Assembly: GCF_900625025.1 (NCBI RefSeq)
Contig: NZ_LR130580.1
Coordinates: 62,001-126,000, forward strand
Reading direction: 5' to 3'
DNA length: 64,000 nt
Source of the DNA: Lachnoclostridium sp. Marseille-P6806
GTDB taxonomy: Bacteria; Bacillota; Clostridia; Lachnospirales; Lachnospiraceae
A program made the translations under genes and the position numbers. A model generated the notes under the pieces. The model saw nothing but the letters and a program-made list of their open reading frames with translations. It ran no database searches and was not told the origin of the DNA. This document shows, one piece after another, positions 625 through 49,812 of the stretch (its first letter is position 1; each line of letters begins with the position of its first letter).

Positions 625-689
625 CATGCCGAAGCATTTTATGCGAGGCAAGCGGCATAAAATTCCGCAAAATTCCGAAGCATTTTATC
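625..689. repeat. Intergenic repeat copy A (CCGAAGCA family)
   Basis: The left end reads ATGCCGAAGCATTTTATGCG, followed by AGGCAAGCGGCATAAAATTC and a second partial copy (CCGAAGCATTTTATC) at 676-690. The same left end occurs at 5221, 26917 and 49591. On the minus strand the core is AUGC-UUCG-GCAU, a four-bp stem capped by a UUCG tetraloop, next to a GCAU-UUU-AUGC stem. It sits between the divergent gltA and BMP-like genes, just upstream of the gltA -10. Confidence 0.7.
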
Positions 690-718
690 TCAGCAGCATA
701 CGGCAGGTTATGGTTATA

Positions 719-727
719 TGGTATGAT
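719..727 (+). promoter_or_regulatory. Extended -10 promoter for the BMP-like operon
   Basis: TGGTATGAT at 719-727 is an extended -10 about 35 nt upstream of the ATG at 762. It overlaps the alternative upstream start at 723, which argues that translation begins at 762. Confidence 0.5.
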
Positions 728-761
728 AAACATACAGCTTGCTTACCTACGGAGGTTTGCC

Positions 762-2714
762 ATGATCGATGATTATCTCAAAGCCAAAAAACAGGGAGAC
801 AGCGCTGTGCGGCGCGCCATCATCCAGGGGCGGGATCCCTATCTGTTCTCGCTCAGCAGCTTCCTGCCGGACTATGACAGCCTTGCCAAAATCTCTCTCG
901 GCATCCGCGAGATCCCGCTCTACATGATCGCAGGAACCGTGACGGCGGGACGCACGAATTCCTTTGCGTGGAACTTCATGCCCCTCCTGAACGATCACAC
1001 GGAGTTTGCCCTCAAGTGGTCCAATCTCTACGACTCTCAGCTCGAATTCGGCATACGTGATCCGATCAAGGTCTATGAATACATGAATCGCTTCTACGTG
1101 CAGGAGGGGAACAAGAGAGTTTCCGTCACCGCGTTTAACGAGGGCGTTTCCATCGCCGCGGAAGTGATCCGTGTCATGCCGCGGCGCACCGGCGATAAGG
1201 AAGTGAATATTTATTACGAATATGTAGATTTCTTTAACGTGACCGGGCTGTTTGAGATTACGTTCAGCGAAGAGGGATCCTACGATAAGCTGGCGGAAAA
1301 ATACGGGCAAAGTCTCTCCGCGCCATGGCCGGAACGCAGCGTGCAGCAGCTCCGTACGGATTTCCATGCATTTCAGGAGGCGTTCAACGCCAAGGGTGGA
1401 GCCAAGCTCGACACCACGGCCGGCGACGGCTTTCTCAAGTACATCGACGTCTATACAGCCGAAAGTATTGACCGGGACAGCCCGGTGCAGATCGCCAAAA
1501 ACACGTCCGCCATATGGAACGAAATTCTGGCTTTCGGCGAGGACAGCATCGTTCTCATCGACAAGGCCGATCCTTCGAAAAAAAGCACCGGAAGCCTGCT
1601 GAACCGCTTTACCGGCTACTTCGGCTCCGCCTATACAAAGGAGGATCCGCTCCGCATTGCGCTCATCTATGAGAAGAACCCCGCGGACTCCGCATGGACC
1701 TACGGCCATGCCCTCGGCCTCAATGAGATCAACGAGAAATATGAGGGGACCGTCGAGGCGATTGCCTTCGAAAATCGTTCCGACAGCGAAGCCATCGACG
1801 AAGCGTTCGACGCTGCGGCGGCCGATAAGGACGCCGTCGTCTTCACCACCTCTCCCGCCATGATGGAGAACGCGCTGCGGGCGGCGATCCGCTACCCGGA
1901 CATGAAGATTCTGAACTGCTCGATCAACCTCTCCAGCAGCGCCGTCCGAACCTACTACCCTCGCATGTACGAGGTCAAATACATCATGGGCGCGCTGGCC
2001 GCCGGCATCGCCCGGGATCATCGCATCGGCTATCTCGCCGACTATCCGATCTACGGCTCCATCGCCAACATCAACGCCTTTGCCATCGGCGCCGCTATGG
2101 TGGACCCTGCGGTTCAGATTCATTTGAAATGGTCCGGCGTAAAAAACAGCCGCTGGGAAGAGGAAATGAGCGCAGAGGGCATCAGCACCATCTCTGGCCC
2201 CGATCTCATAAAACCCGCGGATCCTTCCCGCAAATACGGCGTATACCAGCTCCGGGAAAACGGCTCCATTGCCAACATCGCTGCGCCGGTGTGGCACTGG
2301 GGGCGCTATTACGAGCTGATCATCGACCAGATTCTGAGCGGAACATGGGATTCGCGAGAATCCGTCAAGAAGAGTCACGCACTGAACTATTGGTACGGCC
2401 TGTCCTCCGGCGTCATTGACCTGTTTCTCTCCGATGCGCTCTCCTACTATTCAAAAAAGCTGGTGGATCAGCTCCGCCGCTCGATCGCCGGCTGGACGCT
2501 TCTGCCTTTTGACGGAGAGATCCGCAGTCAGAGCGGCGTGGTTCACAATATCGGCGATCCCGCCATAAGCTACGAACAGATCATCACCATGAACTGGCTG
2601 AACGACAATGTCATCGGCTCCATCCCTGAAGAGGACGAGCTGATTGACAGCGCCCGCGGTACTGTGGGCATAAGCGGCGTCAAAGCCGACAGGCGAGGCT
2701 CCCTTTCCCGATGA
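762..2714 (+). CDS. BMP/PnrA-like protein with ParB-like N-terminal segment, no signal peptide
   Basis: 650 residues. The start at 762 follows a GGAGG and is preferred over 723. Residues about 100-130 (IKVYEYMNRFYVQEGNKRVS) resemble a ParB/sulfiredoxin-type segment. Residues about 295-500 (IALIYEKNPADSAWTYGHAL onwards, with MGALAAGIARDHRIGYLADY) match the BMP family of periplasmic nucleoside-binding proteins (PnrA/Med-like). There is no signal peptide, lipobox or membrane segment, so the protein should be cytoplasmic, unlike a classical ABC transporter binding protein. No permease genes are adjacent. The stop overlaps the next ATG (ATGA), so it is co-translated with the metallophosphoesterase. 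A role as an intracellular nucleoside sensor is inference only. Confidence 0.75.
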   Translation: MIDDYLKAKKQGDSAVRRAIIQGRDPYLFSLSSFLPDYDSLAKISLGIREIPLYMIAGTVTAGRTNSFAWNFMPLLNDHTEFALKWSNLYDSQLEFGIRDPIKVYEYMNRFYVQEGNKRVSVTAFNEGVSIAAEVIRVMPRRTGDKEVNIYYEYVDFFNVTGLFEITFSEEGSYDKLAEKYGQSLSAPWPERSVQQLRTDFHAFQEAFNAKGGAKLDTTAGDGFLKYIDVYTAESIDRDSPVQIAKNTSAIWNEILAFGEDSIVLIDKADPSKKSTGSLLNRFTGYFGSAYTKEDPLRIALIYEKNPADSAWTYGHALGLNEINEKYEGTVEAIAFENRSDSEAIDEAFDAAAADKDAVVFTTSPAMMENALRAAIRYPDMKILNCSINLSSSAVRTYYPRMYEVKYIMGALAAGIARDHRIGYLADYPIYGSIANINAFAIGAAMVDPAVQIHLKWSGVKNSRWEEEMSAEGISTISGPDLIKPADPSRKYGVYQLRENGSIANIAAPVWHWGRYYELIIDQILSGTWDSRESVKKSHALNYWYGLSSGVIDLFLSDALSYYSKKLVDQLRRSIAGWTLLPFDGEIRSQSGVVHNIGDPAISYEQIITMNWLNDNVIGSIPEEDELIDSARGTVGISGVKADRRGSLSR

Positions 2715-3388
2715 AAATACTTGCCATTGCCGATGAAGAGAGCAAGCCTCTCTGGGACTATTATAATCCGGAACGCGTAAAGGATGTCGATCTGATCATA
2801 TCCTGCGGAGACCTCGATCCCGCCTATCTGGAATTTCTGGTCACGATGACAAACTGCCCGTTGCTCTACGTGCACGGAAATCACGACACCAAATATGACT
2901 ACAAGCCGCCCCTCGGCTGCACCTGCATCGAGGACAGGGTCTACAATTTCCGCGGTCTGCGGATCCTTGGGCTCGGCGGCTCCATACGGTACAACGATTC
3001 CAAATATATGTGTACGGAAAAACAGATGCAGAGCCGCATCAATCGTCTGCGCACGGAGATCACGCTCAAAAACGGCTTCGACATCCTCGTCGCCCACGCT
3101 CCGGTCAAGGGCTACGGCGATATGGACGACATCCCGCATCGCGGCTTCGACTGCTTCAACGACCTGCTGACGAGGTATCGGCCCAAATACATGCTTCACG
3201 GTCATGTACATCAGACTTACTCCCGGAATTTTGTCCGCAGCATCAATCATCCCTCCGGAACAAGCATCATCAACTGCTACGAGAGCTTTATCCTTGATAT
3301 CGGTGCGGACGAATACCCGGCCCCGGGCAAAACCGGCTCCGCCCTGTACGATCTGTACATGAATATGAAGCGCCGCCGGGAGCTGTGA
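2711..3388 (+). CDS. Calcineurin-like metallophosphoesterase
   Basis: 225 residues. Metal-binding motifs of the family are visible: GD at residues 33-34 (SCGDLD), GNHD at 56-59, HAP near 130 and GHVH near 163. The usual first DxH is replaced by ADEES, as in some small bacterial members. A soluble phosphoesterase or cyclic-nucleotide/nucleotide phosphatase is expected; the substrate cannot be read from sequence. The gene overlaps the BMP-like gene by four bases, which links the two functionally. The 3' end faces the carD-like gene with a 6-bp gap and no obvious terminator. Confidence 0.85.
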   Translation: MKILAIADEESKPLWDYYNPERVKDVDLIISCGDLDPAYLEFLVTMTNCPLLYVHGNHDTKYDYKPPLGCTCIEDRVYNFRGLRILGLGGSIRYNDSKYMCTEKQMQSRINRLRTEITLKNGFDILVAHAPVKGYGDMDDIPHRGFDCFNDLLTRYRPKYMLHGHVHQTYSRNFVRSINHPSGTSIINCYESFILDIGADEYPAPGKTGSALYDLYMNMKRRREL

Positions 3389-3394
3389 GCCCTT

Positions 3395-3889
3395 CTATTT
3401 TTCGGCGCGGCGGCGGATATAGTCCGGAACCTCATCCGGCCGGATCCCCAGCGAATAGGCAAAGCTTTGGCTGATGATGCTTTCCGCCGCATCCCGGTCC
3501 CTCTCGTCGGCCGCGCTGAGCTTTCTTCCGATGCTCCGGCGTTCCGCATCCTTTTTATACAGGGTGGAAATAATGGAGAGCAGGTCGGAATATTTGCCCT
3601 CATGGATCCGGGATGCGTTCTGCACCTGGCGCTCTTTCTCGTCGGCGATCCATTCCTGATCACGGATTGACGCAATGAGGCCGTCAATCTCCGCTACAGT
3701 CAGAGGGTGGCGAAAGCTCTCTCCGCCTCGCTTCTCATCGACATAAATCGTCATTCTGGTCCGGTAAAGAGGCGCGAGAATGTAGTACGTCTTCTCCCCG
3801 TCTTCCGTCAGTCTCATCCGCTGAATATCCGTAATTCTGCATATTCCGTTGTTCCCGTAGATGACCGCATCTCCGATTTTCCAGTCCAT
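3395..3889 (-). CDS. CarD/CdnL-family transcriptional regulator
   Basis: 164 residues. The N-terminal 60 residues (MDWKIGDAVIYGNNGICRIT, then YYILAPLYRTRMTIYVDEKR) fit the CarD/CdnL/TRCF RNA polymerase-interacting domain; the rest is helical and would form the DNA-binding part. Such proteins bind the RNA polymerase beta subunit and stabilise open complexes. The start at 3889 is preceded by AAAGGAG. A TATAAT at 4005-4010 lies upstream, and a terminator-like hairpin sits between that promoter and the gene, so expression may be attenuated. Confidence 0.85.
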   Translation of the reverse strand: MDWKIGDAVIYGNNGICRITDIQRMRLTEDGEKTYYILAPLYRTRMTIYVDEKRGGESFRHPLTVAEIDGLIASIRDQEWIADEKERQVQNASRIHEGKYSDLLSIISTLYKKDAERRSIGRKLSAADERDRDAAESIISQSFAYSLGIRPDEVPDYIRRRAEK

Positions 3890-3925
3890 CGCGCACTCTC
3901 CTTTCTCTCCCCGCGGAGTCCATTT

Positions 3926-3969
3926 AAAAAGGGAATCGTTCCGCTGTTAAAGATGGAAAACGATCCCCC
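3926..3969 (-). terminator. Terminator-like hairpin in the carD leader / after glgD
   Basis: On the minus strand GGGGATCGTT (3968-3959) pairs with AACGATTCCC (3940-3931), followed by TTTTTAAAT. It lies 37 nt upstream of the carD-like ATG and downstream of glgD, so it may end glgCD transcripts, attenuate carD, or both. Confidence 0.7.
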
Positions 3970-4004
3970 ACACAAAGCTCTGTGTACAAGCCCGAACTAT
4001 TTTA

Positions 4005-4032
4005 ATTATATCATAATTTTAATAATTGTGCA
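4005..4032 (-). promoter_or_regulatory. Promoter upstream of the carD-like gene
   Basis: The minus strand carries TGCACA, a 16-bp spacer and TATAAT (4010-4005). The predicted start near 3998 gives a leader of about 110 nt that contains the terminator-like hairpin at 3926-3969. The -35 matches TTGACA at four of six positions. Confidence 0.5.
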
Positions 4033-4093
4033 GTATGTTCCTCTCAAAATAATAATTTTATTTCTATTGTCGGAAAATTTTGTTCTTCGGAAA

Positions 4094-5209
4094 TCAGAGC
4101 ACATCGTCGCGGTGAATGTAGCCCGGACGTTCTCCGCTCGCCACAATCTCTTTCATATGCACGATTTTCGCCCACTTATCGATCACCTGATACTCAAGAT
4201 GGACGTCACAGTCAATGATCGTATGTCCGAGAATCATGCAGTTGCGGACCACCGCGCCTTTCCGTATGGTGACGCCGCGCCCGATCACACTGTTTTCCAC
4301 CACTCCCTCGATCGTACAGCCGTTCGCAATCATCGAATTACGCACGGATGCACCCTCGGCATACTTGGTCGGGCAGGAATCCGTAGTCTGCGTATAGATC
4401 TGCCAGTCGGGCCGGAAAAGCTCACGCGCCGTGTCGATGTCAAGCAGCTCCATATTGGCGTCATAGTAGCTCTGAAAATCGCAGATCGCCGCAAAATACC
4501 CCCGGTGCGGCACTCCCCGGATATCCAGATTGGCGTTCTCAATGTTGACGACCTCCGAGAGCGTGTAGACCGACGACAGCTTGTGTCCCTTGCGGATCAG
4601 GCTCACAAACAGCTCTCTCTTCATGATGTAGGTATCCATGAAAATATTCCGTTCGTTCGCAGTCCCGAGATTCGGCCCGATCGCATTGAGCCCTTTCTGC
4701 CGGTTCAGTTCGAGTACATTGCAGTTCTGATAAGCCGTCTTCGCGTTGTCCACGCGGTGATACAGCAGGGTGATATCCGCACCGGACTCTATATGCTGCT
4801 CAAGAAGCGTGTTGAAATCCTGCGTAAACACCATGTAGCCCGGCGTAAGAATGACATATTCCTGCGGCATTCTCTCAATGATTTCAATATTTTCCAGATA
4901 GCTTGAGAGGTCCGTATTGTAGATATCATTGAGACGGCTGTCCTGATTGAACAGAAGCTGGAGCTTACCGCGCTTCGAGTTGATGTTATAGTGCTGTCCC
5001 CCGGCCAGATGCTCCGCCAGCGAGCGCGGGTTCTGACTGACATACACCTGTATCCTGTCGATATTGCTGTTGCTCAGATTCGAGACCGGAAAGTCAATGA
5101 CACGGTAACGTCCCAGAAAAGAAAACGCACCGATCGGGCGATGATCCTGCAGCCCCTCCACTCGGAAGCGGCTCCCGGACGAAGTTACGATTCCAAACGC
5201 TGTTGCCAT
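4094..5209 (-). CDS. glgD: Glucose-1-phosphate adenylyltransferase regulatory subunit
   Basis: 371 residues. Nucleotidyltransferase-like fold followed by a left-handed beta-helix region (NSMIANGCTIEGVVENSVIG and the repeats after it). The N-terminal loop reads GIVTSSGSRF instead of the catalytic GGxGxRL seen in GlgC, which is characteristic of the GlgD partner subunit. It should form a hetero-oligomer with GlgC to make ADP-glucose for glycogen. The ATG at 5209 is preferred to 5215 because GGAGG lies six bases upstream of 5209 but abuts 5215. It follows glgC by 40 bp, and an intergenic repeat copy fills that gap. Confidence 0.93.
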   Translation of the reverse strand: MATAFGIVTSSGSRFRVEGLQDHRPIGAFSFLGRYRVIDFPVSNLSNSNIDRIQVYVSQNPRSLAEHLAGGQHYNINSKRGKLQLLFNQDSRLNDIYNTDLSSYLENIEIIERMPQEYVILTPGYMVFTQDFNTLLEQHIESGADITLLYHRVDNAKTAYQNCNVLELNRQKGLNAIGPNLGTANERNIFMDTYIMKRELFVSLIRKGHKLSSVYTLSEVVNIENANLDIRGVPHRGYFAAICDFQSYYDANMELLDIDTARELFRPDWQIYTQTTDSCPTKYAEGASVRNSMIANGCTIEGVVENSVIGRGVTIRKGAVVRNCMILGHTIIDCDVHLEYQVIDKWAKIVHMKEIVASGERPGYIHRDDVL

Positions 5210-5220
5210 ATCCATCCTCC

Positions 5221-5257
5221 ATGCCGAAGCACTTGTGCAGCGTGATTTTTCACACTA
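5221..5257. repeat. Intergenic repeat copy B (short form) between glgC and glgD
   Basis: Starts ATGCCGAAGCACTTGTGCAG and ends GCGTGATTTTTCACACTA. The same two ends bound a version of about 222 bp at 49591-49812, so this looks like an internally deleted copy. On the minus strand it places the UUCG hairpin directly against the GGAGG of glgD. Confidence 0.75.
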
Positions 5258-6395
5258 TTTCTTTCCCTTTGACATCCTGCGCAACGAGCAGGATATTCTC
5301 GCTGTCTGCGCTTCCTGCAACCGCGCCCTTTCCGATATGCACGCCGTCCGCGACCAGAGCCCGGGTCACAACGGCTCCCTCGCCGATTTCCACCCCGGGC
5401 ATCAGCACCGAGTCGATGACTCTGGCGTGCTTATCCACTCTGGCCCCGGTAAACAGCACGGAGCGCTGTACCTCGCCCTCAATGGCGCAGCCCTGCGTAA
5501 TATAGGCAGTATCGACTTTTGCCTCCGGTCCGATATACTGCGGCAGGGCATTCTGATTCTCCGAATAGATAAGCCAGCTCGAATCATCCAGATTCAGGGC
5601 GTTCCGGCGATCCAGAAGATCCATATTGGCCTCCCAGAGAGAATCGATGGTTCCGACATCTTTCCAGTAGCCCTTGAATTCATAGGCATACAGACCGCAA
5701 CCGTTTCCAAGCATCGTCGGAATGATATCCTTGCCGAAATCATGGTGCGAATCGCAGTTCTTTATATCGGAAAGCAGAAGCTCTCTCAGCAGCTTCCAGT
5801 TGAAAATGTAGATTCCCATCGAGGCCAGATTGCTTCTGGGATGCTCGGGCTTCTCCTCAAACTCGACAATGCGATTATTCTCATCGGTGTTCATGATTCC
5901 GAAGCGGCTCGCCTCCCTCATCGGAACACCGATCACCGCAATGGTCGCATCTGCGCCGTGCGCCTTATGAAAATCGAGCATAAGATCATAGTTCATCTTG
6001 TAAATATGATCTCCCGACAGAATCAGCAGATATTCCGGATCATAATTGTCGATGAAATCAATATTCTGAGAAATGGCATCCGCCGTTCCCCGGTAAACGT
6101 CAAGGTTCGCATCCGCTTTCTCGCGGGGCGGCAGAACAAAAACACCGCTGTCCTTGCTGTCAAGCCCCCAGCGCCGACCGGCCGCCACATAGCTGTTCAG
6201 CAGCACGGATTCGTACTGCGTAAGGACGCCGATGATATCGATGCCGCTGTTGGAGCAGTTGCTGAGAGGAAAGTCGATGATACGGTATTTCCCCCCGAAA
6301 GAGACAGCCGGTTTGGCTACCTTGTTGGTGAGCTCCCTGAGGCGGCTTCCCCGGCCGCCGGCAAGGATCATGGCCAGCATTTCATTCTGCTTCAT
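5250..6395 (-). CDS. glgC: Glucose-1-phosphate adenylyltransferase catalytic subunit
   Basis: 381 residues. Makes ADP-glucose from ATP and glucose-1-phosphate, the committed step of glycogen synthesis. [13 protein letters not shown] near residue 8 is the nucleotide-binding loop, [20 protein letters not shown] follows, and the C-terminal third is a beta-helix with hexapeptide-like repeats ([20 protein letters not shown]). Length is usual for the family. The start at 6395 is preceded by GGGAGGA. Translationally upstream of glgD; the last bases overlap the repeat in the intergenic gap. A possible -10 (TATACT) lies near 6440. Confidence 0.95.
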
Positions 6396-6452
6396 GGATG
6401 GTCCTCCCTGTCCTTGGATTGAATAATCCTACAAAAATAGTATACTGCATTT

Positions 6453-6740
6453 TTGCCGTCTTTTCTTCCTGATTCAGAACTTTCCGCCTGCTTTTTTCTG
6501 GATTTTTGCGCTTGCATTTTCAAAATTTTCGTTTTATCCTGTATTCGTTCGGAGTTTCATACTCCGTCTTATGTCTCGGGCATTTTTCTTATTTCGATTT
6601 TCCGGCTTCCGCTTTCTGTTTTCTCCGCTCCCGCTTTTCACTCCCACCTTTTGCTTCTGTTTTTATTTCCGCTTTTTCTATTTTTGTTTCTATTTTCCGG
6701 GTTTCTGTTTCTTTTTCCATTTTCTGTTTTTATTTCTGTA
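6453..6740 (+). other. Pyrimidine-rich gene-free stretch
   Basis: The plus strand is almost entirely C and T, with degenerate repeats of TTTCTATTTT/TTTCTGTTTT type between 6650 and 6735. Open frames here give only low-complexity Phe/Ser/Leu peptides and are not genes. The stretch separates the glgC promoter area from the tnpB fragment and ends just before its AAGGAGG. No terminator or RNA family is recognised. Confidence 0.6.
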
Positions 6741-6758
6741 TGACAAGGAGGACCCGTC

Positions 6759-7400
6759 ATGTCATCTGTCTACCGCGGTTATAAGTATCGTCTTCATCCC
6801 ACGCCGAAGCAGGCCGGTCAGCTCGATGAAATCCTTTCCGCCGTCCGTCTTGCCTACAATATGCTGCTCGACTTTTCCATTGATCAGTATGGCAGGAACA
6901 GGCAGTTTCCGTCCCTTGGTGAGCTGAATGCCGCCTTTCCGGACATCCTGTCCCGGCAGGACGTCCTGTCTCCCGTTGATCCCGCCATACTGCAAAAAAG
7001 CGTGCAACAGCTCGATCACGCCCTGCGCTCCCGCGAGAGCGGCGGCGCTCGGCAGCTCCCTCGGCATAAGTCCGCAGCGGACTTGCGCTCCTCCTTTACC
7101 GTCCCGTACCGGGGCGAAAACACGCTCTCCATCTCCTGTCTGAATATTGCCGGCATCCATAATATCCGCATTGCTCCCGGCCCGACAGTTCACTCATCTC
7201 TGGTCCGCCTCAGCATGACGCTCACCCGCACAATATCCGGGAAATATCTCGTCTCCCTGCTGTGCCGTCAGTCCGCACCCGCCCCCGCTTGGTTTGATGT
7301 TTCCGGGATCCGCTATCAGCCGCACCGGCCGCTCTCGGTTGTTCCTGCTTCGGCAGACGTCTGCCACGGCAAAACACTCCGCAGCGCCTCCTATCACTGA
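6759..7400 (+). pseudogene. TnpB (IS200/IS605 OrfB) N-terminal fragment without RuvC domain
   Basis: 213 residues. The opening VYRGYKYRLHPTPKQAGQL and LAYNMLLDFSIDQYG match the N-terminal helix-turn-helix region of TnpB. Later IHNIRIAP and SLVRLSMTLTRTISGKYLVS match the beta-barrel segment just before the RuvC domain. The frame then ends; the catalytic Asp/Glu/Asp residues, the zinc finger and any guide-RNA-encoding 3' end are absent, and no tnpA is nearby. Family members are about 370-420 residues, so about half is missing. The reading frame itself is intact and preceded by a strong AAGGAGG seven bases from the ATG. It may be a decaying remnant; a retained DNA- or RNA-binding fragment is the alternative. 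Confidence 0.7.
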
Positions 7401-7495
7401 TTCTTTTCGTTCCGCCGTACTGCCCGGGAAGCACTGCCCGGAAAATGCGGCCTGGAAAGCCGTCCCCGCCGCTGTTCCCGTCCGCATTTTTGCGG

Positions 7496-7524
7496 TTGAC
7501 ACCGCTCTCCGGGCTTGTTATAAT
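7496..7524 (+). promoter_or_regulatory. Consensus sigma-A promoter for tRNA-Thr
   Basis: TTGACA (7496-7501), 17 bp, TATAAT (7519-7524). Both hexamers are perfect. The start is expected near 7531, 31 bp upstream of the tRNA. Confidence 0.9.
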
Positions 7525-7561
7525 CTCTCTTGCGTCCGGAAAACACCGGCGCAGGCAGCAG

Positions 7562-7634
7562 GCTGATGTAGCACAGTCGGTAGTGCGTCGCATTGGTAGT
7601 GCGGAGGTCACGGGTCCGATTCCCGTCATCAGCT
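7562..7634 (+). tRNA. tRNA-Thr (anticodon GGT)
   Basis: Folds as a full cloverleaf: acceptor GCTGATG/CATCAGC, D stem GCAC/GTGC, anticodon stem TCGCA/TGCGG with loop TTGGTAG (anticodon GGT), T stem ACGGG/CCCGT. The D stem uses an A-U pair where most bacterial tRNAs have U-A, with both sides changed together. No CCA is encoded. It is a single-gene unit with its own promoter and terminator. Confidence 0.93.
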
Positions 7635-11895: not shown

Positions 11896-12198
11896 AAATT
11901 TCCCTGTCAATATCACATTTTTTGAGCTAAGATATAGATTGTTTTTATCAGCGTACGAATTAGGTTATAACACAGGTACCCAGCCGAACGCCAGCGCGTT
12001 CGGCTCCGAGACGCTTCGCGTCTCATGGCGTCCCACCGCACAGCTGCTTCAGGATGCTCCCCCGGGGCTGCCGAACGCCAGCGCGTTCGGCTCCGAGACG
12101 CTTCGCGTCTCATGGCGTCCCGCCGCACAGCTGCTTCAGGATACTCCCCCGGGGCTGCCGAACGCCAGCGCACAAAATTCTTTGAAAGGATGACTTTT
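11896..12198. other. Divergent intergenic region with tandem repeats
   Basis: 303 bp between vanW and the UPF0371 gene. It holds an AT-rich part (11917-11980) that must carry the promoters of both genes, though no convincing -35/-10 pair was found, and the 87-bp tandem repeat array. Open frames crossing it only translate the repeats. Confidence 0.6.
11983..12172. repeat. Tandem 87-bp hairpin-rich repeat, 2.2 copies
   Basis: Units start at 11983, 12070 and 12157 (the third is truncated after 16 bp). The two full copies differ at only a few positions. Each unit contains GCCGAACGC-CAGC-GCGTTCGGC (9-bp stem) and GAGACGC-TTC-GCGTCTC (7-bp stem), then a CCCCCGGGG palindrome. The second hairpin with its flanking CATGG and GGAC resembles the GAGCCGC-TCT-GCGGCTC hairpin inside repeat copy D at about 49656. 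Such units fit BIME/REP-like elements. Confidence 0.9.
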
Positions 12199-26416: not shown

Positions 26417-26905
26417 TCACTTGCTGTTGATATAATTGATCAGTCCCTCGGAGTCGATAATCTTTTGCATGAACGGAGGAAATGCCTGCCCCCGGAACGT
26501 CTCCCCGGTCGTCTCATCCGTAATAATTCCGGTATCAAAGTCCACCCGGACCCGGTCCCCCGCATGAATCCTCTCGGAGGCCTCTTTGCATTCCACAATC
26601 GGCAGACCGATGTTGATCGCGTTGCGGTAAAAAATACGGGCAAAGGTCTCCGCAATCACACAGGAAATGCCCGACGCCTTAATGGCGATCGGTGCATGCT
26701 CTCTGGAGGAGCCGCAGCCGAAATTTTTCCCTGCCACAATCATATCGCCCCTCTGCACTTTTGTCACAAATTCCCGGTCAATATCCTCCATGCAGTGCTT
26801 TGCCAGCTCTGCCGGGTCGCCGGTCGCAAGATATCTTGCCGGAATGATGACATCGGTATCCACATTGTCCCCGTAACGAAGTACGGTTCCGTTCGCTGCC
26901 TGCAT
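26417..26905 (-). CDS. leuD: 3-isopropylmalate dehydratase small subunit
   Basis: 162 residues, the short archaeal/clostridial type. [15 protein letters not shown] near the start, [20 protein letters not shown] and [15 protein letters not shown] are the swivelling aconitase domain. Works with LeuC in leucine synthesis. ATG 26905 has GGAGG five bases upstream; that ribosome binding site is directly joined to an intergenic repeat copy filling the gap to leuC. Confidence 0.95.
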
Positions 26906-26916
26906 AGCAATCCTCC

Positions 26917-27034
26917 ATGCCGAAGCATTTTTAAGTATTTGTACTCCACAAAAGACGGGGTATTTGACCCTCGCGGCATTCGCCAAATGGACATGCAAGC
27001 ATGCCCACTTGGCTCATTGCTCGCGGGAATCAAT
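26917..27034. repeat. Intergenic repeat copy C inside the leuC-leuD operon
   Basis: Starts ATGCCGAAGCATTTTTAAGT and continues to the leuC stop. It contains an imperfect hairpin at about 26989-27018, CCAA(a)TGG(a)CATG-CAAG-CATG(c)CCA(c)TTGG. The left end is shared with copies at 625, 5221 and 49591, but the middle differs, so the family is mosaic. As the gap between co-transcribed genes it should be present in the mRNA just before the leuD ribosome binding site. Confidence 0.7.
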
Positions 27035-42385: not shown

Positions 42386-42388
42386 AGA

Positions 42389-43099: not shown

Positions 43100-43115
43100 A
43101 GCCCACTCCCCATCC

Positions 43116-43628
43116 TTACAAATCGGTCAGCCCCGGCATGAGAAAGACCCGGATATAGCCCTTTTCCGGGCAGACCTCCCGCACGCAGTCCGGAATCACG
43201 GGGAGAAGAAGCTCTTTTCCCTCTGGCCTCTGCACCACATAGACCTTGTTGGCGCCGGTTTCCAGCACATCTGTCAGCGTGCCGATCGCCTCATCCGCTT
43301 CGCCGATCACGGAGAGTCCGATCAGATCCGGGATGAAATGTTCGCCCTCCGCAAGCGGGACGGCGTCTTTCCGGTCAATTTCCAGATCAAAGCTGCGGAG
43401 ACGCTCCACATCCTCGATCCGGTCAAATTCCTCAAAGCCGAGCACCACAAACTGGCCGACAAATTTCACGGAGCGGATGGTGAGGATCTGCTCCTGCTTT
43501 CTGCCGACCAGATATACGGTCTTCAGCTTCCGGAAGCGCTGCGGATCGTCCGTCGTCGGGAAAACCCGAACCTCGCCTTTCAATCCGTGCATTCCGGCAA
43601 TAATTCCTACGCGAAACCGTTCTGTCAT
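43116..43628 (-). CDS. rimM: Ribosome maturation factor RimM
   Basis: 170 residues. [20 protein letters not shown] is the family start; the PRC-barrel C-terminal half includes [20 protein letters not shown] and [15 protein letters not shown]. Helps 30S assembly. Start at 43628, seven bases after khpA, without a strong ribosome binding site, so coupling to khpA is likely. Confidence 0.93.
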
Positions 43629-43635
43629 ATGCCGC

Positions 43636-43863
43636 TCAGTCGATGTCCACATCCACTCTGGTGTTGTCTCTGGTGGACGCGGCCTTGACCACGGAACGGA
43701 TCGCCCGCGCGATTCGCCCCTGCCTGCCGATCACCTTGCCCATATCGGAGGGGGCGACATGAAGCTGAACCTTGACATTTTTTCCGTCTCTGGTTTCTGT
43801 GACGACGACTTCATCGGGATGATCCACCAGAGATTTTGCGATCACTTCCACTAATTCTTTCAA
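43636..43863 (-). CDS. khpA: KH-domain RNA-binding protein KhpA
   Basis: 75 residues from a TTG start. The canonical KhpA N-terminus (M)KELVEVIAKSLVDHPDEV begins here, and GAGGT lies five bases before TTG. An ATG four codons upstream (43875) overlaps that ribosome binding site. The KH loop GKVIGRQGR is intact. Partner of KhpB in post-transcriptional control. Between rpsP and rimM, as in most Firmicutes. Confidence 0.88.
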   Translation of the reverse strand: MKELVEVIAKSLVDHPDEVVVTETRDGKNVKVQLHVAPSDMGKVIGRQGRIARAIRSVVKAASTRDNTRVDVDID

Positions 43864-43963
43864 TTTCGACCTCATAGCTGCCGCTGTGCGCACGCCTCCG
43901 TATTCGCCCGGCGGGGGCGCGCAGTGCAGATCTCTTCCTCTGACGGAAGCAAACGGACGGGAT

Positions 43964-44206
43964 TTACTTATTGACGCCGGCCTGTCTGAACAGCTTCGCG
44001 ACAACGGTCGTCGGCTGCGCGCCCTTCGACAGCCATTCCTTTGCCAGCTCCGCATCCACTTTCAGGTCATGCGGCTGCACATTCGGGTTGAAGGTGCCGA
44101 TCTGCGCGATAATGCTGCCGTTTCTGGGAGTTCTCGAATCCGCCACGACAATTCTGTACATGGGGACCTTCTTCTCACCGATTCTTGCCAGTCTGATTTT
44201 AACCAT
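43964..44206 (-). CDS. rpsP: 30S ribosomal protein S16
   Basis: 80 residues, MVKIRLARIGEKKVPMYRIV, SRTPRNGSIIAQIGTFNPNV; normal length. GAGGAAAG precedes 44206. Between ffh and khpA. Confidence 0.97.
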   Translation of the reverse strand: MVKIRLARIGEKKVPMYRIVVADSRTPRNGSIIAQIGTFNPNVQPHDLKVDAELAKEWLSKGAQPTTVVAKLFRQAGVNK

Positions 44207-44338
44207 CGTTCTTTCCTCCGCTTGAAAACTGTTTTTTTATTTTGAAAAAGGCTTCCGGTCTGTCCGGATCCTTTATTCACGATTGTTCCGCGCTCTCTGC
44301 ACCGGCAGAGAATACGCCCCCGGGAATGCGCCCGTGAT

Positions 44339-45719
<1,381 letters not shown>

Positions 45720-45730
<11 letters not shown>

Positions 45731-46085
45731 CCGTAAGTTCCTCTCTGATCCTCTGAATCGACGTCAGATACATCTGCCGCGCCGCATCCGGCGCCGCTCC
45801 GTCCTGTGCTGCCGCGCGTTCCGCCTCCCCGCACAGGGCCTCGATCTTCTGAAAGCGCCGTATCATATGCAGGCGCTCCTCATAGCTCTCGAGAATCGCA
45901 GTCGTCCGCCGCAGCAGATCGTGAACCGCCTGCTTGCTCACCTGCTCCGCCTCGGCAATCTCCGAGAGCGAAAAATCATTATAAACGGCAAGCTCGTATA
46001 TCTTCTGCTGATGCGCGGTGAGGAGCGAGCCGTAGAAATCATACAGAAGCCCCTGTGCTACGATTTTCTCAGTTTCATCCGCCAT
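45720..46085 (-). CDS. ylxM: YlxM/p13 family helix-turn-helix protein
   Basis: 121 residues. A sigma-70 region 4-like HTH: LTAHQQKIYELAVYNDFSLS, EIAEAEQVSKQAVHDLLRRT. Nearly always upstream of ffh; a role in SRP function or regulation is assumed. AAAGGA lies ten bases before ATG 46085. First gene of the SRP/ribosome operon, driven by the promoter at 46139-46167. Confidence 0.9.
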
Positions 46086-46106
46086 GGCAGCCGCATCCTT
46101 TGGAAA

Positions 46107-46136
46107 TGAAAAACAGGCATCCTGCCGATGCCTGTT
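46107..46136 (-). terminator. Terminator overlapping the ylxM promoter start
   Basis: Minus strand AACAGGCAT (46136-46128), 7-nt loop, ATGCCTGTT (46120-46112), then TTTC. It ends transcripts from the GH25-like gene. Its upstream arm lies between the ylxM -10 and the predicted start, so it cannot form fully in ylxM mRNA. Confidence 0.8.
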
Positions 46137-46138
46137 AC

Positions 46139-46167
46139 ATCATACGTTCCCGCAAAAGCTCTGTCAA
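46139..46167 (-). promoter_or_regulatory. Sigma-A promoter for ylxM-ffh operon
   Basis: Minus strand TTGACA (46167-46162), 17 bp, TATGAT (46144-46139). Near-consensus; predicted start about 46132. Confidence 0.88.
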
Positions 46168-46226
46168 GTATTTTTTCTTGACCCGCATGGAATCCAGCGA
46201 ATCGGCGAATCAACGGAACCGGAGAA

Positions 46227-47321
46227 TTACCGGTCCGGTTCGGACACCCACAGATCGAGGTTCACTCTGCCGTCGATCCCGTCCACCTCGCCCCGGTCCG
46301 AATACTGCCAGTAACGGAAGCGATACGGAAAATACAGCTCTCCTCCGCGGTCGGAAACCCACTTGGGCTCCTCTGACAGCGCGGCGAGATCCAGCTTCAT
46401 CGTATAGGCCGTAATACCCGCGAAAACCACGGTGTCATAACCGGCGTCCCGCACCGCTCCCGCAAATGTCCGGACACAAGCCGTAAGCTGCGCTCTGCCG
46501 AGCGGAAAGCTGCGATCCTCCTCCCCCGGCATGGGGACGACGACGGCAACGGGCCCCGTGATCTCATCACCGGCCGCGGCAAGCTGCCTTTTTACCCATT
46601 CCGCATCCTCCACGGCTTCCTCCTCCGAAACTACCGTCAGGCGATAGTAGGCCCCGGTTTCCAGACCGGCCCTGGCCGCACCCGACACATTTTTATCAAA
46701 ACGCGCGTCTTTCCGGATGTTTCCGTCCGCGTCTCGGCCTCCGAGGCTCACAAAGGCAAAATCCATGCCGTCGTCATAGACCGCCTCCCAGTCGATCTCT
46801 CCGCTGTTCTCCGAGACATCGATCCCCTGCCGCGTCCGGACAGAGCTGTCCGAACCGATATAGCGCATTCTTCCGGCGGCGTCCTGCTCAAAATCCGCTT
46901 CTGTGAAAGAGCTGATGGGTACATTGCTCTGGATGGAATAAAAATAATAGCGGTCGCCGTTCCTCACCACAAGATCATCCGGGAAGAGCTTCCGGAGCAT
47001 TGTGAGCGTGTTCTCGCCGGATTCCAGCGAGGACTGTATTCTCTGGAGCATCGCATTCCGCTCCGTAAGCCTTGCGTCCCGCTCCGCCTCCGCGACCTCC
47101 CCGTCAACCTCCTCCTGCGTATAGAGCTTGTCCTTTTCCCCCTGCACCGCCTCGATGCGGGCCTCCAGACGCCGCAGCTCCTCGCCGGTGCCGCGCAGAC
47201 GGAACACGAGAAAGACCGCCGCCGCGAGCACAGCCAGCGTAAGTCCGCAGAGGAAAAGGATATTGATGAGATATGCTGTCCGGATCCGGTTCGGATTTGT
47301 CGTTTTTTCCTGTCTGCTCAC
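46227..47321 (-). CDS. Membrane-anchored GH25-like protein, probable pseudoenzyme
   Basis: 364 residues. Cytoplasmic N-terminus, membrane segment about 17-41, coiled coil about 45-105, then a GH25 (Chalaropsis-type lysozyme) fold: QGIDVSENSGEIDWEAVYDD with Asp168, FDKNVSGAARAGLETGAYYR and the C-terminal YRFRYWQYSDRGEVDGIDGR. At the place where GH25 enzymes carry the catalytic DxE after PVY/PVA, this protein reads GPVAVVVPMPGEE (256-268), so both acidic residues appear lost. It may bind rather than cleave peptidoglycan. Located after ilvA on the same strand; ends at the terminator at 46107-46136. Confidence 0.75.
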   Translation of the reverse strand: MSRQEKTTNPNRIRTAYLINILFLCGLTLAVLAAAVFLVFRLRGTGEELRRLEARIEAVQGEKDKLYTQEEVDGEVAEAERDARLTERNAMLQRIQSSLESGENTLTMLRKLFPDDLVVRNGDRYYFYSIQSNVPISSFTEADFEQDAAGRMRYIGSDSSVRTRQGIDVSENSGEIDWEAVYDDGMDFAFVSLGGRDADGNIRKDARFDKNVSGAARAGLETGAYYRLTVVSEEEAVEDAEWVKRQLAAAGDEITGPVAVVVPMPGEEDRSFPLGRAQLTACVRTFAGAVRDAGYDTVVFAGITAYTMKLDLAALSEEPKWVSDRGGELYFPYRFRYWQYSDRGEVDGIDGRVNLDLWVSEPDR

Positions 47322-47348
47322 TCTGCCTCCTCATCTTTTCCTGCCGCA

Positions 47349-48572
47349 TCAAAGCTGCGTCTGAATGATATTCGGCCGATAGCCCTTTTGTTCCAGCGCC
47401 GCCGTGATTTTTTCCTTATGCTCCGGCCCGAACGCCTCCAGCGTAATGCGGAGCTCCACGGCCGCTGTCCGGTTGATGGATACGAACTGATTGTGCTCCA
47501 GACGGATCACGTTTCCGCCCTCTCCCGCAATCACGCCGGACACCCGCGACAGCTCGCCCGGCTTATCGGGAAGCTGGACGGACACCGTGAAGATGCGGCT
47601 CCGGAGCACCAGTCCGTGCTGCACGACCGAGGACATGGTGATCACGTCCATATTGCCGCCGGAGAGCACAGAAACAACCTTTTTCCCGGCGCAGTCCACA
47701 TGCTTGAGCGCAGCCACGCTCAGCAGTCCGGAATTCTCCACAACCATCTTGTGATTCTCCACTATATCAAGGAACGCCGTGACAAGCTCCTCATCCGGAA
47801 CCGTGATCACAGTGTCAAGGTTTTCCCTGAGATAAGGAAAGATCACAGAGCCGGGCGTCTTGACCGCCGTGCCGTCCGCGATCGTACTGACGGAGGGGAG
47901 CGTCGTCACCCTGCCCTCGCGAAAGGATGCCGAAAGACACGCCGCTCCCTCCGGCTCGACGCCGATTACCCGGATCTTGGGATTCAGAAGCTTTGCCAGC
48001 GTGGAGACGCCGGCGGCAAGTCCGCCGCCGCCGACCGGCACCAGTATGATGTCGACGAGAGGCAGCTCCTTGATGATCTCCATGCCGAGGGTTCCCTGCC
48101 CGGTCGCCACCACCGGATCATCAAAGGGATGGATAAAGGTATAGCCCTTTTCTTCCGCGAGCTGCAGCGCCTGCCCGCAGGCCTCGTCGTATACATCGCC
48201 GAAAAGAATCACCTCCGCGCCGAGCGCCTTGGTCCGGTTGACCTTGATCAGCGGGGTCGTTCTCGGCATGACAATGACGGCCTTTGCGCCGTAGGCGCGG
48301 GCGGCATACGCTACCCCCTGCGCGTGATTGCCGGCCGAAGCCGTAATGATGCCGCGGGCGCGCTCCTCCTGCGACATGACGGAGATCCTGTAATACGCGC
48401 CTCTGATTTTATATGCGCCCGTTCTCTGCATGTTTTCGGGCTTCAGATAAACCTTTCCCCCCGTCTGCTCGCTGAAATAATCCGAATACAGAAGATCGGT
48501 GTTCAGCGTCACGCGGTTCACCGCCTCGCAGGCCTCTTCAAACGCTTCCAGTGTCAATGGCTCTCTGCTCAT
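47349..48572 (-). CDS. ilvA: Threonine ammonia-lyase (threonine dehydratase)
   Basis: 407 residues. PLP lysine Lys55 in RTGAYKIRGAYYRI, phosphate loop PVGGGGLAAGVSTLA, ASAGNHAQGVAYAA, and a C-terminal ACT-like domain (FTVSVQLPDKPGELSRVSGV). Yields 2-oxobutyrate for isoleucine, or acts catabolically; the single ACT-type tail fits the form annotated ilvA/tdcB in Clostridia. The start at 48572 follows GGGAG; the frame from 48620 overlaps the ftsY stop (TGATG) and lacks a clear ribosome binding site. Confidence 0.92.
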   Translation of the reverse strand: MSREPLTLEAFEEACEAVNRVTLNTDLLYSDYFSEQTGGKVYLKPENMQRTGAYKIRGAYYRISVMSQEERARGIITASAGNHAQGVAYAARAYGAKAVIVMPRTTPLIKVNRTKALGAEVILFGDVYDEACGQALQLAEEKGYTFIHPFDDPVVATGQGTLGMEIIKELPLVDIILVPVGGGGLAAGVSTLAKLLNPKIRVIGVEPEGAACLSASFREGRVTTLPSVSTIADGTAVKTPGSVIFPYLRENLDTVITVPDEELVTAFLDIVENHKMVVENSGLLSVAALKHVDCAGKKVVSVLSGGNMDVITMSSVVQHGLVLRSRIFTVSVQLPDKPGELSRVSGVIAGEGGNVIRLEHNQFVSINRTAAVELRITLEAFGPEHKEKITAALEQKGYRPNIIQTQL

Positions 48573-48619
48573 ATCTGTTTTCTCCCCGCCTGAGATATCC
48601 GTCTTTCCGGTTCCCGTCA

Positions 48620-49579
48620 TCAGGCCTGCGCCGCCGTTTCCATCCCTGCGTCGAACAGGGCGTCGACAAATTCATCCGGCCGGAATTTCTGCAGGTCGTC
48701 CATTTTCTCCCCGATACCGATGAATTTTACCGGTATGCCGAGCTCCGACTGCACCGCGATCGCAATTCCTCCTTTTGAGGTTCCGTCCATCTTGGTCAGA
48801 ATAATGCCCGTGAGATCGGTGACATCGTTGAATTCCCGGGCCTGCGCCAGCGCATTCTGGCCGGTCGTCCCGTCAAGAACAACCAGATTTTCCCGCTTGG
48901 CGCCGGGGAACTCTCGGGATATGATGCGGTCCATCTTGCGCAGCTCCTCCATCAGATTTTTCTTATTGTGGAGCCGTCCCGCCGTATCGCACAGGAGAAT
49001 GTCCGCCCGCCTTGCTTTCGCCGCCTGCACCGCATCGAACAGGACGCTGCCCGGGTCCGAGCCCTCCGGAGCGCTGATCATATCCACTCCCGCCCGGGAA
49101 GCCCACTCCGCAAGCTGCTCGCCCGCCGCCGCGCGGAATGTATCCGCCGCCGCGATGAGAACCTTTTTCCCCTGTCCGCGGTAAATGCCCGCCAGCTTGC
49201 CGACCGAGGTCGTCTTGCCGACGCCGTTCACTCCGATGACAAGGACGACAGACGGTCCCTCCTCGAAATCATAGGCTCCCTCGGCCACTCGCATCTGCTC
49301 GCGGATATTTCCGATCAGCAGCTCCCGGCACGCCTCGGGCTCATGAATGCGGCGCTCGCGCACCTGCTCCCGCAGTTCCGAGAGAATGCGGTCCGTCGCG
49401 CCGATCCCGATGTCCGCCATGATCATCGTCTCCTCGAGATCCTCATAAAAGTCGTCGTCGATCTTCGCATAGCCGGTGAACACCCGGTCCAGACTGCCCG
49501 CGATATTCTGCCGGGTCTTGGACAGCCCCTCTTTCAGTCTGGCGAAAAAGCCGTGCTTTTTCTCTCTCTCTTCTTCCAT
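48620..49579 (-). CDS. ftsY: SRP receptor FtsY
   Basis: 319 residues. N domain without a long acidic A region, then G domain: VLVIGVNGVGKTTSVGKLAG (about 115-134), LLCDTAGRLHNKKNL, VLDGTTGQNALAQA, LTKMDGTSKGGIA. Docks SRP-ribosome complexes at the membrane. Separated from smc by 243 bp that hold a long intergenic repeat. Confidence 0.97.
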   Translation of the reverse strand: MEEEREKKHGFFARLKEGLSKTRQNIAGSLDRVFTGYAKIDDDFYEDLEETMIMADIGIGATDRILSELREQVRERRIHEPEACRELLIGNIREQMRVAEGAYDFEEGPSVVLVIGVNGVGKTTSVGKLAGIYRGQGKKVLIAAADTFRAAAGEQLAEWASRAGVDMISAPEGSDPGSVLFDAVQAAKARRADILLCDTAGRLHNKKNLMEELRKMDRIISREFPGAKRENLVVLDGTTGQNALAQAREFNDVTDLTGIILTKMDGTSKGGIAIAVQSELGIPVKFIGIGEKMDDLQKFRPDEFVDALFDAGMETAAQA

Positions 49580-49590
49580 CTGACATCACC

Positions 49591-49812
49591 ATGCCGAAGC
49601 ACTTTGTGCGAGGCACGCGCCGTAAAAGCACCCTGCGCCGGCGCGCAGGCTGCCGAGCCGCTCTGCGGCTCATGCCATCCCTCCACCTGACAGCATTTTT
49701 CGCTTGCTGAAAGGTCCGCGCAGGCGGTTTTACGGCTGCGATCAGAGGCTATTTGGGCTTCGGCACAAATAGCCGTGCGAAAAATCAGCGCATCAGCGTG
49801 ATTTTTCACACT
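49591..49812. repeat. Intergenic repeat copy D (long form) between smc and ftsY
   Basis: Left end ATGCCGAAGCACTTTGTGCG, right end GCGTGATTTTTCACACTA. Inside are several hairpins: CTGCGC-CGGC-GCGCAG, GAGCCGC-TCT-GCGGCTC (about 49656-49672), GGCTATTTG...CAAATAGCC (about 49747-49774) and GTGCGAAAAATCA...TGATTTTTCACAC (about 49776-49811). It fills almost the whole gap between two genes expected to be co-transcribed. Ends match copy B at 5221-5257. Confidence 0.8.

What the first reader, a model, noticed from the sequence alone, without database searches (positions are those of the whole stretch)
625..49812. Dispersed intergenic repeat family with a conserved UUCG hairpin placed just upstream of genes
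Four copies (625, 5221, 26917, 49591) begin ATGCCGAAGCA. On the sense strand of the downstream gene this reads AUGC-UUCG-GCAU, a UUCG-capped stem. A second small stem next to it shows compensatory change: GCAU-UUU-AUGC in copy A and GCAC-UUU-GUGC in copy D. In copies B and C the hairpin is joined directly to the GGAGG of glgD and leuD. Covariation plus position suggest selection at RNA level, or a mobile miniature element with a preferred insertion site.
Basis: seen in the sequence. Interest (0 to 1): 0.7.

Follow-up and report, generated by a model that had tools for sequence, protein, structure and literature searches.

The report
Mobile structured repeats that insert at ribosome-binding sites
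Many gut bacteria related to Lachnospiraceae carry copies, often dozens, of a small folded DNA element that appears to have jumped into the ribosome-binding sites of ordinary genes, leaving each gene with a new binding site at the element's end, so it can spread where insertion would be expected to do harm.

Summary
The four window copies belong to a large interspersed family: at least 51 copies in the window's genome, 142 hits among 150 scored candidates in a congener, and some in 45 of 62 genomes of the genus. Full copies are about 138 nt, or about 225 and 310 nt with extra 87-nt modules. They fold into three hairpins, a small fourth stem, and a pairing of the hairpin-2 loop with the 3' tail, supported by compensatory changes. 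The UUCG hairpin is not conserved (15 of 121). Copies lie in gene sense directly 5' of start codons (143 of 172 within 15 nt), with a Shine-Dalgarno-like sequence also on the 5' side (182 of 229).

Between two sister species, 10 of 16 queried sites are occupied in one and empty in the other; nine were read, and in seven the element sits at the native Shine-Dalgarno with an SD-like sequence at its own 3' end. It is best read as a MITE-like mobile element that targets ribosome-binding sites. It has no terminal inverted repeats and no Rfam family above threshold. Y1, IS607 and TnpB do not explain it. The recombinase, and any effect on translation, are unknown.

The parts
49590..49813 (-). Copy D: complete element with the 87-nt module in hairpin 3 (about 225 nt), between smc and ftsY
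   Evidence: R1 match 49583-49813, 129.5 bits; sequence; not seen at 11 congener smc-ftsY loci, by reading and by the model (0 of 11)
49584..49590 (-). GGTGATG, Shine-Dalgarno-like 3' end of copy D, in front of ftsY ATG (49577-49579); the same seven bases stand at 49814-49820 on the 5' side
5220..5257 (-). Copy B: internally deleted element with both ends kept, between glgC and glgD; joined to GGAGG (5216-5220) of glgD
   Evidence: R1 match 5213-5257, 12.4 bits, E 0.009; NTP_transferase in both genes
26916..26943 (-). Copy C: 3' end only, joined to GGAGG in front of leuD (ATG at 26903-26905)
   Evidence: R1 match 26909-26943, 14.7 bits, E 0.0015; Aconitase_C
618..710 (-). Copy A: decayed element, 5' part not recognisable; not directly in front of a long ORF
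   Evidence: R1 match 21.4 bits, E 5.7e-6
11983..12156 (-). Two tandem 87-nt units related to the 87-nt module that is inserted in hairpin 1 or 3 of the longer elements; intergenic
   Evidence: the repeat finder D1; local alignment scores 28 and 30.5; 200 shuffles of the first comparison reached at most 21.5

Best explanation
The family is a non-autonomous, MITE-like mobile element whose integration site is the Shine-Dalgarno (SD) sequence of genes. SHOWN: it is absent from orthologous sites of a sister species; it sits in gene-sense orientation at the purine-rich SD in most sites read; the ATG behind it is kept; the element's own 3' end (ATGGAGG, ATGGTGAT or ATGAAAGG, depending on subfamily) stands at normal SD spacing; and the element keeps a covarying fold of P1, P2, P3, P4 and a P2-loop-to-tail pairing. 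INFERRED: a recombinase supplied in trans recognises the folded ends and joins them at the GG of the SD. Because the element carries a replacement SD that lies just outside the folded tail, the gene stays translatable, so insertions are nearly neutral and copies can build up to more than a hundred, tandem copies included. Orientation is fixed because the SD is asymmetric. Old copies lose their 5' part by deletion while the 3' end stays, because it is now the gene's SD.
For: Copy number: 51 of 51 scored candidates in G000 and 142 of 150 in G070 match. Empty sites: of 16 sites queried between sister species G021 and G035 (95-99.5% identical over the five loci they share), 10 give one continuous match at 82-99% identity in the other species, and 9 of these were read base by base, for example GGGAGG|AAAAATG empty against GGGAGGG|AAGAGTG...CATGAAAGGG|AAAAATG occupied. 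Position: start codon of an ORF of 50 or more codons within -8 to +15 nt of the model end in 143 of 172 copies, against 28 of 163 on the antisense side and 27.7% at 3440 random positions. 5' flank: SD-like words in the last 10 nt in 182 of 229 copies, against 26-49 of 229 in the five next windows upstream. Tandems: 14 of 31 G070 copies have an element-like tail just upstream by a loose motif rule, clearest in L331, L333, L353 and L357. Fold: 43 pairs, 97.3% of 804 cells paired, 18 pairs with changes on both sides; 0 of 500 shuffles as high for four of five measures. Loop-tail pairing mean 6.93 nt against 5.05 +/- 0.12 with tails swapped, 173 pairs. P4 in 47 of 121 tails, 3.1 expected. SD-to-start stretch more unpaired than with shuffled elements: 0.51 against 0.44, 53 of 70 copies. 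The genes behind the window copies are unrelated (ftsY, leuD, glgD).
Against: No transposase or recombinase has been tied to the family, and without an outgroup precise loss cannot be excluded at each polymorphic site. Target duplication is weak: 5' and 3' SD sequences agree more than by chance over all species (tandem copies included) and in the named-assembly set (p 0.001), but not within G000 (p 0.26; 0.06) or G021/G035 (p 0.50), and in G070 only for runs of 6 nt or more (p 0.014; mean p 0.10). In G000 and G021 subfamilies the 3' SD variant travels with the element. Two of the nine empty sites read are not clean SD targets (L358, L382), and the 3' end of L382 is not SD-like. One covariation measure, further pair types, does not exceed shuffles (225 of 500). 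The gain in SD accessibility is small, and that model cannot include the pseudoknot. In 29 of 172 copies no qualifying start was found within 15 nt.
Confidence: 0.8

Rival explanations
1. A cis-regulatory RNA (translational switch). The leader folds, and the P2-loop-to-tail pairing just before the SD turns translation of the gene up or down in response to a signal or protein.
For: Sense orientation, position at the SD, covarying pseudoknot next to the SD; P4 and the loop pairing share nucleotides and could compete.
Against: Presence differs between two species that are 95-99.5% identical over shared loci. The genes behind the window copies are unrelated. At smc-ftsY the element is absent from 11 of 11 congener loci. 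Ten G000 copies keep only the last 21-48 nt and so lose the fold. No Rfam family reaches its threshold.
Confidence: 0.15
2. A derivative of an IS200/IS605 or IS607 transposon (REP or PATE type), with an omega-RNA-like 3' end, moved by Y1 or serine TnpA.
For: No terminal inverted repeats, structured ends, insertion at GG. IS607 inserts at GG without target duplication (PMC6188088, passages). A pseudoknot at the 3' border resembles TnpB guide RNAs (recalled).
Against: Y1_Tnp: 0 matches in G000, the only genome searched. TnpB zinc-ribbon: 0 in seven copy-rich genomes (G000, G070, G014, G072, G021, G035, G031); it is present in six other copy-rich and two copy-free genomes of the 18 searched. IS607 transposase above cut-off in 1 of 16 copy-rich and 1 of 17 copy-free genomes; weaker matches in 17 others look like other serine recombinases. 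The element model finds nothing at 16 of the 20 TnpB loci fetched, the 16 I gave it.
Confidence: 0.1
3. A SINE-like retroelement: the folded RNA is reverse transcribed into SD sites by a reverse transcriptase acting in trans.
For: Structured RNA-like element, no terminal inverted repeats, constant 3' end, many copies lacking the 5' part, repeated SD in a subset.
Against: Copies lacking the 5' part mostly do not abut an SD on the 5' side, as truncation during insertion would predict: 9 of 31 as scripted (8 of 25 after leaving out five copies that do have both ends and the look-alike L005), against 13 of 16 full copies. Later deletion explains them.
Confidence: 0.05
4. A mobile leader-peptide cassette. 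The old SD drives a small ORF starting in P1 (GTG AAA AAT CAC ...) and translation is passed on to the gene by termination at its start.
For: SD plus NTG spacing on the 5' side. The frame is open to the 3' end in 86 of 153 copies, against 5 and 14 in the other two sense frames.
Against: Antisense frames are also often open (31, 25 and 53 of 153). The distance from the GTG to the 3' motif keeps no frame (49/26/25 mod 3 in 100 copies). Several subfamilies stop after 3 to about 28 codons.
Confidence: 0.15

Closest known systems
BOX elements of Streptococcus pneumoniae (PMC3049150: abstract, outline and passages read)
   Same: Short interspersed repeats, modular (constant ends with a variable number of inner modules), strong predicted RNA folds, thought to be parasitic, sometimes encoding ORFs.
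   Different: The paper speaks of terminal inverted repeats of BOX similar to ISSpn2. The family here has none, abuts an SD on both sides and has a fixed orientation relative to the gene. The sequences were not compared.
Bacterial MITEs in general (PMC10969869 and PMC2229807: term searches only)
   Same: Non-autonomous, small, mostly intergenic, no conserved coding capacity.
   Different: No terminal inverted repeats; an RNA-type covarying pseudoknotted fold; insertion at the Shine-Dalgarno. Neither text contains the terms Shine-Dalgarno or ribosome binding.
REP/RAYT and IS605/IS607-derived palindromic elements (recalled, apart from IS607 in PMC6188088)
   Same: Folded ends, no terminal inverted repeats, insertion next to a short target.
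   Different: The matching transposase or TnpB is missing from G000 and TnpB from six further copy-rich genomes.
HEARO/omega-RNA elements (recalled)
   Same: Structured, repeated, mobile RNAs of similar size.
   Different: No such Rfam family among the matches at E <= 1 on six loci; no TnpB-type nuclease found in seven copy-rich genomes.

Membership tests
MITE | Many short, non-coding, dispersed copies that differ in presence between close relatives | tested here: met
MITE | Terminal inverted repeats | tested here: not met
   Longest shared stretch between the ends has mean 3.91, shuffled 3.93; 7 nt or more in 3 of 229, the longest (13) in a 52-nt contig-end fragment where both ends are P1 itself
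MITE | Target site duplication | tested here: inconclusive
   Significant across species and in the named set, not within G000 or G021/35
MITE | Ends shared with an autonomous transposon | not tested
   No transposon with these ends was met, but no systematic search for one was run
BOX elements | Sequence match to boxA/boxC | not tested
   Works like BOX in being modular; sequences were not compared
REP / IS200-IS605 | Y1 transposase in the genome | tested here: not met
   PF01797: 0 matches in G000; found in 5 of 14 control genomes
IS607 or TnpB (omega-RNA) derivative | IS607 TnpA or TnpB in the copy-rich genomes, with an element-like end | tested here: not met
   Absent from G000, G070, G014, G021, G035 and others; present in some copy-rich genomes without element-like ends at the 16 loci tested
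Riboswitch or cis-regulatory RNA | Conserved association with orthologous or functionally related genes | tested here: not met
Riboswitch or cis-regulatory RNA | Covarying structure upstream of start codons | tested here: met
Any Rfam 15 family | Score above gathering threshold | tested here: not met
   Window: only a tRNA. Six element loci at E <= 1: the plasmid antisense RNA family AS-pc01 overlaps two L018 copies at 31.5 and 29.1 bits (gathering 79), and V_AS7 (55.5 of 90) lies outside the element in L134. For the L018 copy alone AS-pc01 has E 0.0003, carried mainly by the P3 hairpin

The most novel reading that the evidence does not exclude
A separate class of mobile element that homes to Shine-Dalgarno sequences. 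The target is recognised through its own folded nucleic acid (a guide- or bridge-like mode, or a yet unknown recombinase), and the element pays its way by rebuilding the ribosome-binding site it interrupts. By spreading, it gives dozens of unrelated genes in one cell the same structured 5' leader, which could bring them under a common translational control.
Probability: 0.25. Interest if true: 0.88.

Novelty: new variant of a known kind. Interest (0 to 1): 0.72.

Why it matters
Small interspersed repeats are usually thought to settle where they do no harm. This family goes to a most sensitive place of a bacterial gene, the ribosome-binding site, and appears to get away with it by carrying a replacement. 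That makes a clear, testable case of a mobile element that is tolerated because it repairs what it breaks. It is widespread in Lachnospiraceae-type genomes, where it can mislead gene-start annotation, and it may alter the translation of many genes at once. The covarying fold and the unknown driver pose an open question about how it moves.

Tried and rejected
UUCG mini-hairpin as the conserved feature: present in 15 of 121 tails. Simple target-site duplication: 5' and 3' SD variants often disagree (for example GGAGGAT against GGTGATT in G000). Leader peptide as the conserved product: frame and length not kept. Retro-type 5' truncation: copies lacking the 5' part mostly lack a 5' SD. Y1, TnpB and IS607 as driver. 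Phage or plasmid origin, tested with one 145-nt copy (L123): no match in plasmids, three weak matches of 56-60% coverage in unannotated faecal 'Bacteriophage sp.' records; two patterns gave nothing in viral contigs. TGCTTCGGCATGG in 61 relatives: 15 matches in 12 genomes other than G000; the 11 that I printed are not the element, four were not printed. Rfam AS-pc01: a sub-threshold likeness of the P3 hairpin, taken as chance.

The GTDB set was chosen by a P1 pattern, so P1 conservation there is by construction. The 172 copies are what was left of 199 after dropping duplicates and copies too near a contig end; one search kept 153 of these and 101; one search used only tails that fit a list of tail motifs (121 distinct).

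Literature: nine searches listed no paper that I recognised as reporting such a family; only open-licence PMC texts are held, so this is weak evidence. Papers: PMC6188088 passages; PMC3049150 abstract, outline and passages; PMC10969869 and PMC2229807 term searches only; all others as search listings.
Full report
CHECK. The motif ATGCCGAAGCA occurs five times in the window (0.06 expected; 0 of 100 shuffles reach five). The fifth (15833) is inside an Asp23-family gene. In the whole genome (G000, 3.13 Mb in 38 contigs; the window is C7:62001-126000) there are 51 exact CATGCCGAAGCA and 33 exact GTGATTTTTCACACTA, with 0 for the reversed patterns. At least one of the 51 (L005) is a look-alike inside a 414-codon open frame. 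The second motif is the other end of the same element: copy D runs for about 225 nt from one to the other, and copy B is 39 nt with both ends and the middle gone.

ANATOMY. In the sense of the gene behind it the element reads TAGTGTGAAAAATCAC...GCAC AAA GTGC TTCGGCATGG(A/T)G(G)ATT...ATG. Lengths in G000 cluster near 138, 224 and 310 nt. The longer forms have an extra module of about 87 nt in hairpin 1 or hairpin 3, or both. An alignment of 19 copies from eight genomes gives P1, P2 and P3, with 16 of 39 predicted pairs changed on both sides in at least one copy. With the pairing of the P2 loop to the tail added (43 pairs in all), 97.3% of 804 cells are paired and 18 pairs have changes on both sides. 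None of 500 shuffles reaches the observed value for four of the five measures; the fifth, the number of further pair types, is not above shuffles (225 of 500). Sliding one side by 1-3 columns drops pairing to 33-52%. The loop-tail pair reads CCGAAGC/GCTTCGG, CCGGAGCGC/GCGCTCCGG, CCGGAGCGTC/GACGCTCCGG, GCCGGGC/GCCCGGC or GTCGAAGCGC/GCGCTTCGAC in different copies. Over 173 distinct loop-tail pairs the mean run of exact complement is 6.93 nt, against 5.05 +/- 0.12 with tails swapped; 98 have 7 nt or more, against 34. The UUCG hairpin is found in 15 of 121. The ends share no inverted repeat (mean longest match 3.91, shuffled 3.93; 7 nt or more in 3 of 229).

DISTRIBUTION. A covariance model built from those 19 copies (R1) finds the family in 45 of 62 genomes of the genus at E <= 0.001. 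Only 51 candidates per genome were scored, so counts such as 51 (G000), 50 (G070, G014, G076) and 48 (G015) are lower bounds; 17 genomes have none at this setting. With 150 scored, G070 gives 142. In a sample of 246 genomes of the order (12 candidates scored each), 12 have a match, G000 included: other genera of the same family, a second family, and one weak partial match in a third. The 80 listed come mostly from MAGs named Lachnospiraceae, Acetatifactor, Roseburia, Clostridium and the like, and from isolates Bacterium C-53, Bacterium D16-51 and Lachnospiraceae bacterium 10-1; a few MAG labels (Bacillus, Bacteroides) may be naming errors. The patchy spread, from none to over a hundred copies inside one genus, is that of a mobile element.

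POSITION. From 199 matches of at least 40 bits, 172 remained after dropping duplicates and copies too near a contig end. In 143 of 172 a start codon of an ORF of at least 50 codons lies within -8 to +15 nt of the model end; 80 lie exactly 2 nt behind it. On the antisense side of the 5' end it is 28 of 163, and at random positions 27.7% of 3440. Of the 29 misses several are tandem copies, or starts whose ORF is shorter than the limit (printed). On the 5' side, 182 of 229 copies have an SD-like word in the last 10 nt (142 with GGAG or GAGG), against 26-49 (9-19) in the five windows further upstream. Tandem copies begin right behind the SD-like end of the copy before (L001, L006, L138). By a loose motif rule this holds for 14 of 31 G070 copies, clearest in L331, L333, L353 and L357.

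EMPTY SITES. Of 15 G021 and 14 G035 loci compared, five pair up, at 95-99.5% identity; 10 and 9 are seen in only one. For 16 of these 19 I searched both genomes with the joined flanks. Ten give one continuous match in the other species at 82-99% identity (L358, L360, L362, L368, L370, L372, L374, L378, L382, L359; L362 is the one at 82%). Three show a remnant or a short form (L367, L379, L380), one is a tandem array (L361) and two have no counterpart (L371, L373). Nine of the ten were read base by base (L362 was not). In seven the insertion point is a purine-rich SD: L360 ATGGAGGC/ATACATGG, L370 GGGAGG/AAAAATG, L374 (behind the tail of an older copy), L378, L359, L372 (AGAGGC) and L368 (TAGGGA, weak). 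L358 lost the old SD stretch, and L382 is an A-rich stretch without a clear SD. In all nine the ATG behind is kept. In eight the element's 3' end stands as an SD-like sequence before it; in L382 it does not. In the G021 subfamily that end is ATGAAAGG at several loci, so it came with the element; only the next bases (GGC, GGG, GGT) agree with the 5' side. Without an outgroup, precise loss is not excluded at single sites. The smc-ftsY site of copy D has no element at 11 of 11 congener loci, by reading and by the model.

TARGET DUPLICATION. Comparing the SD on the two sides, agreement exceeds permuted pairs over all species (101 copies, tandems included; mean shared run 5.13 against 4.37, 0 of 200) and, without tandems, in the named set (p 0.001). 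It does not within G000 (p 0.26; 0.06 in the first version) or G021/35 (p 0.50). In G070 there are 4 runs of 6 nt or more against 1.3 expected, p 0.014, with mean p 0.10. Single cases are striking (GGATAT on both sides in L156, GGTGATG in copy D). I therefore claim short or partial duplication in a subset, not a fixed target duplication.

HOW IT WORKS. Shown: a folded, repeated element that differs in presence between sister species, placed at SDs in gene-sense orientation, with an SD-like 3' end. Inferred: a recombinase acting in trans joins the folded ends at the GG of the SD, and the gene remains translatable because its new SD lies outside the folded tail. Weak support: in 70 copies drawn from those of 125-170 nt, the stretch from SD to start is more unpaired with the real element than with shuffled ones (0.51 against 0.44; 53 of 70; Wilcoxon p 1e-5), by a model without pseudoknots. 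Many G000 copies keep only the 3' part. Of 47 aligned 3' ends, 31 do not align to the 5' end, and 9 of these border an SD-like word, against 13 of 16 complete copies. Five of the 31 (L010, L015, L056, L063, L077) do have both ends, and L005 is the coding look-alike; without these it is 8 of 25. This is as expected from later deletion while the 3' end serves the gene.

WHAT MOVES IT. Y1 transposase is absent from G000, the only genome searched. TnpB is absent from seven copy-rich genomes, G000 and G070 among them, but present in six other copy-rich and two copy-free ones of 18; the element model finds nothing at the 16 of 20 TnpB loci that I gave it. IS607 transposase passes its cut-off in one copy-rich and one copy-free genome of 33, with weaker, below-cut-off matches in 17 more. 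IS607 was considered because it inserts at GG without duplication (PMC6188088, passages). The driver is unknown and may be a family I did not search (IS110, tyrosine recombinases, DDE types, reverse transcriptases).

A SMALL ORF. P1 holds an NTG AAA AAT start behind the old SD. The frame is open to the 3' end in 86 of 153 copies (5 and 14 in the other sense frames; 31, 25 and 53 in antisense frames), but length and frame are not kept. It may be translated in some subfamilies; it is not the conserved product.

KNOWN OR NEW. No Rfam family reaches its threshold. The nearest, the plasmid antisense RNA AS-pc01, scores 31.5 of 79 bits on one copy, mainly through the P3 hairpin, E 0.0003 when that copy is searched alone; I take it as chance likeness. 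Nine literature searches listed nothing that I recognised as this family. The nearest relatives in behaviour are BOX elements and other small interspersed repeats. It fails the inverted-repeat criterion of MITEs, so I call it MITE-like, not a MITE. I rate it a new variant of a known kind, with a real chance that the mode of target choice is new.

Noticed in passing
window 11983-12156: Two tandem 87-nt units, 98% identical, standing alone between genes and related to the 87-nt module found inside hairpin 1 or 3 of the longer elements: the module may move or multiply on its own.
   Followed up: partly
window 5250-5257; L126 433-435: The glgC reading frame ends inside copy B (...GAA ATA GTG TGA), so the element supplies the stop codon of the upstream gene; in L126 a 144-codon upstream frame likewise ends with the element's first bases, TAG.
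   Followed up: partly
L126 (G073), L018, L219, L234, L242, L263 and others: The frame starting in P1 runs in phase into the gene behind it, so gene callers may annotate false N-terminal extensions beginning MKNHADAL... or MKNHTDVL....
   Followed up: partly
G000 subfamily ending GGTGATT: A 3' end reading GGTGAT instead of GGAGG; both should pair with the 16S rRNA tail but in a different register (recalled), giving two SD types carried by one family.
   Followed up: no
L344, L351, L354, L356 (G070), 5' flanks: Several G070 copies stand behind a different short hairpin (CTGCGG followed by an SD-like GGAGG or GGGAG), perhaps the tail of a second, related repeat family.
   Followed up: no
L018 1417-1519: Sub-threshold Rfam likeness to AS-pc01, a plasmid antisense RNA, mainly in the P3 hairpin (31.5 of 79 bits).
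   Followed up: partly
phage records MT836788, MT837007, MT838414: Three short faecal records labelled Bacteriophage sp. match 56-60% of an element at 78-80% identity; they may be bacterial contigs.
   Followed up: no
window 46992-47007 and 5867-5995: Weak look-alikes of the motif or model (3 mismatches; 11.8 bits); not followed further.
   Followed up: no
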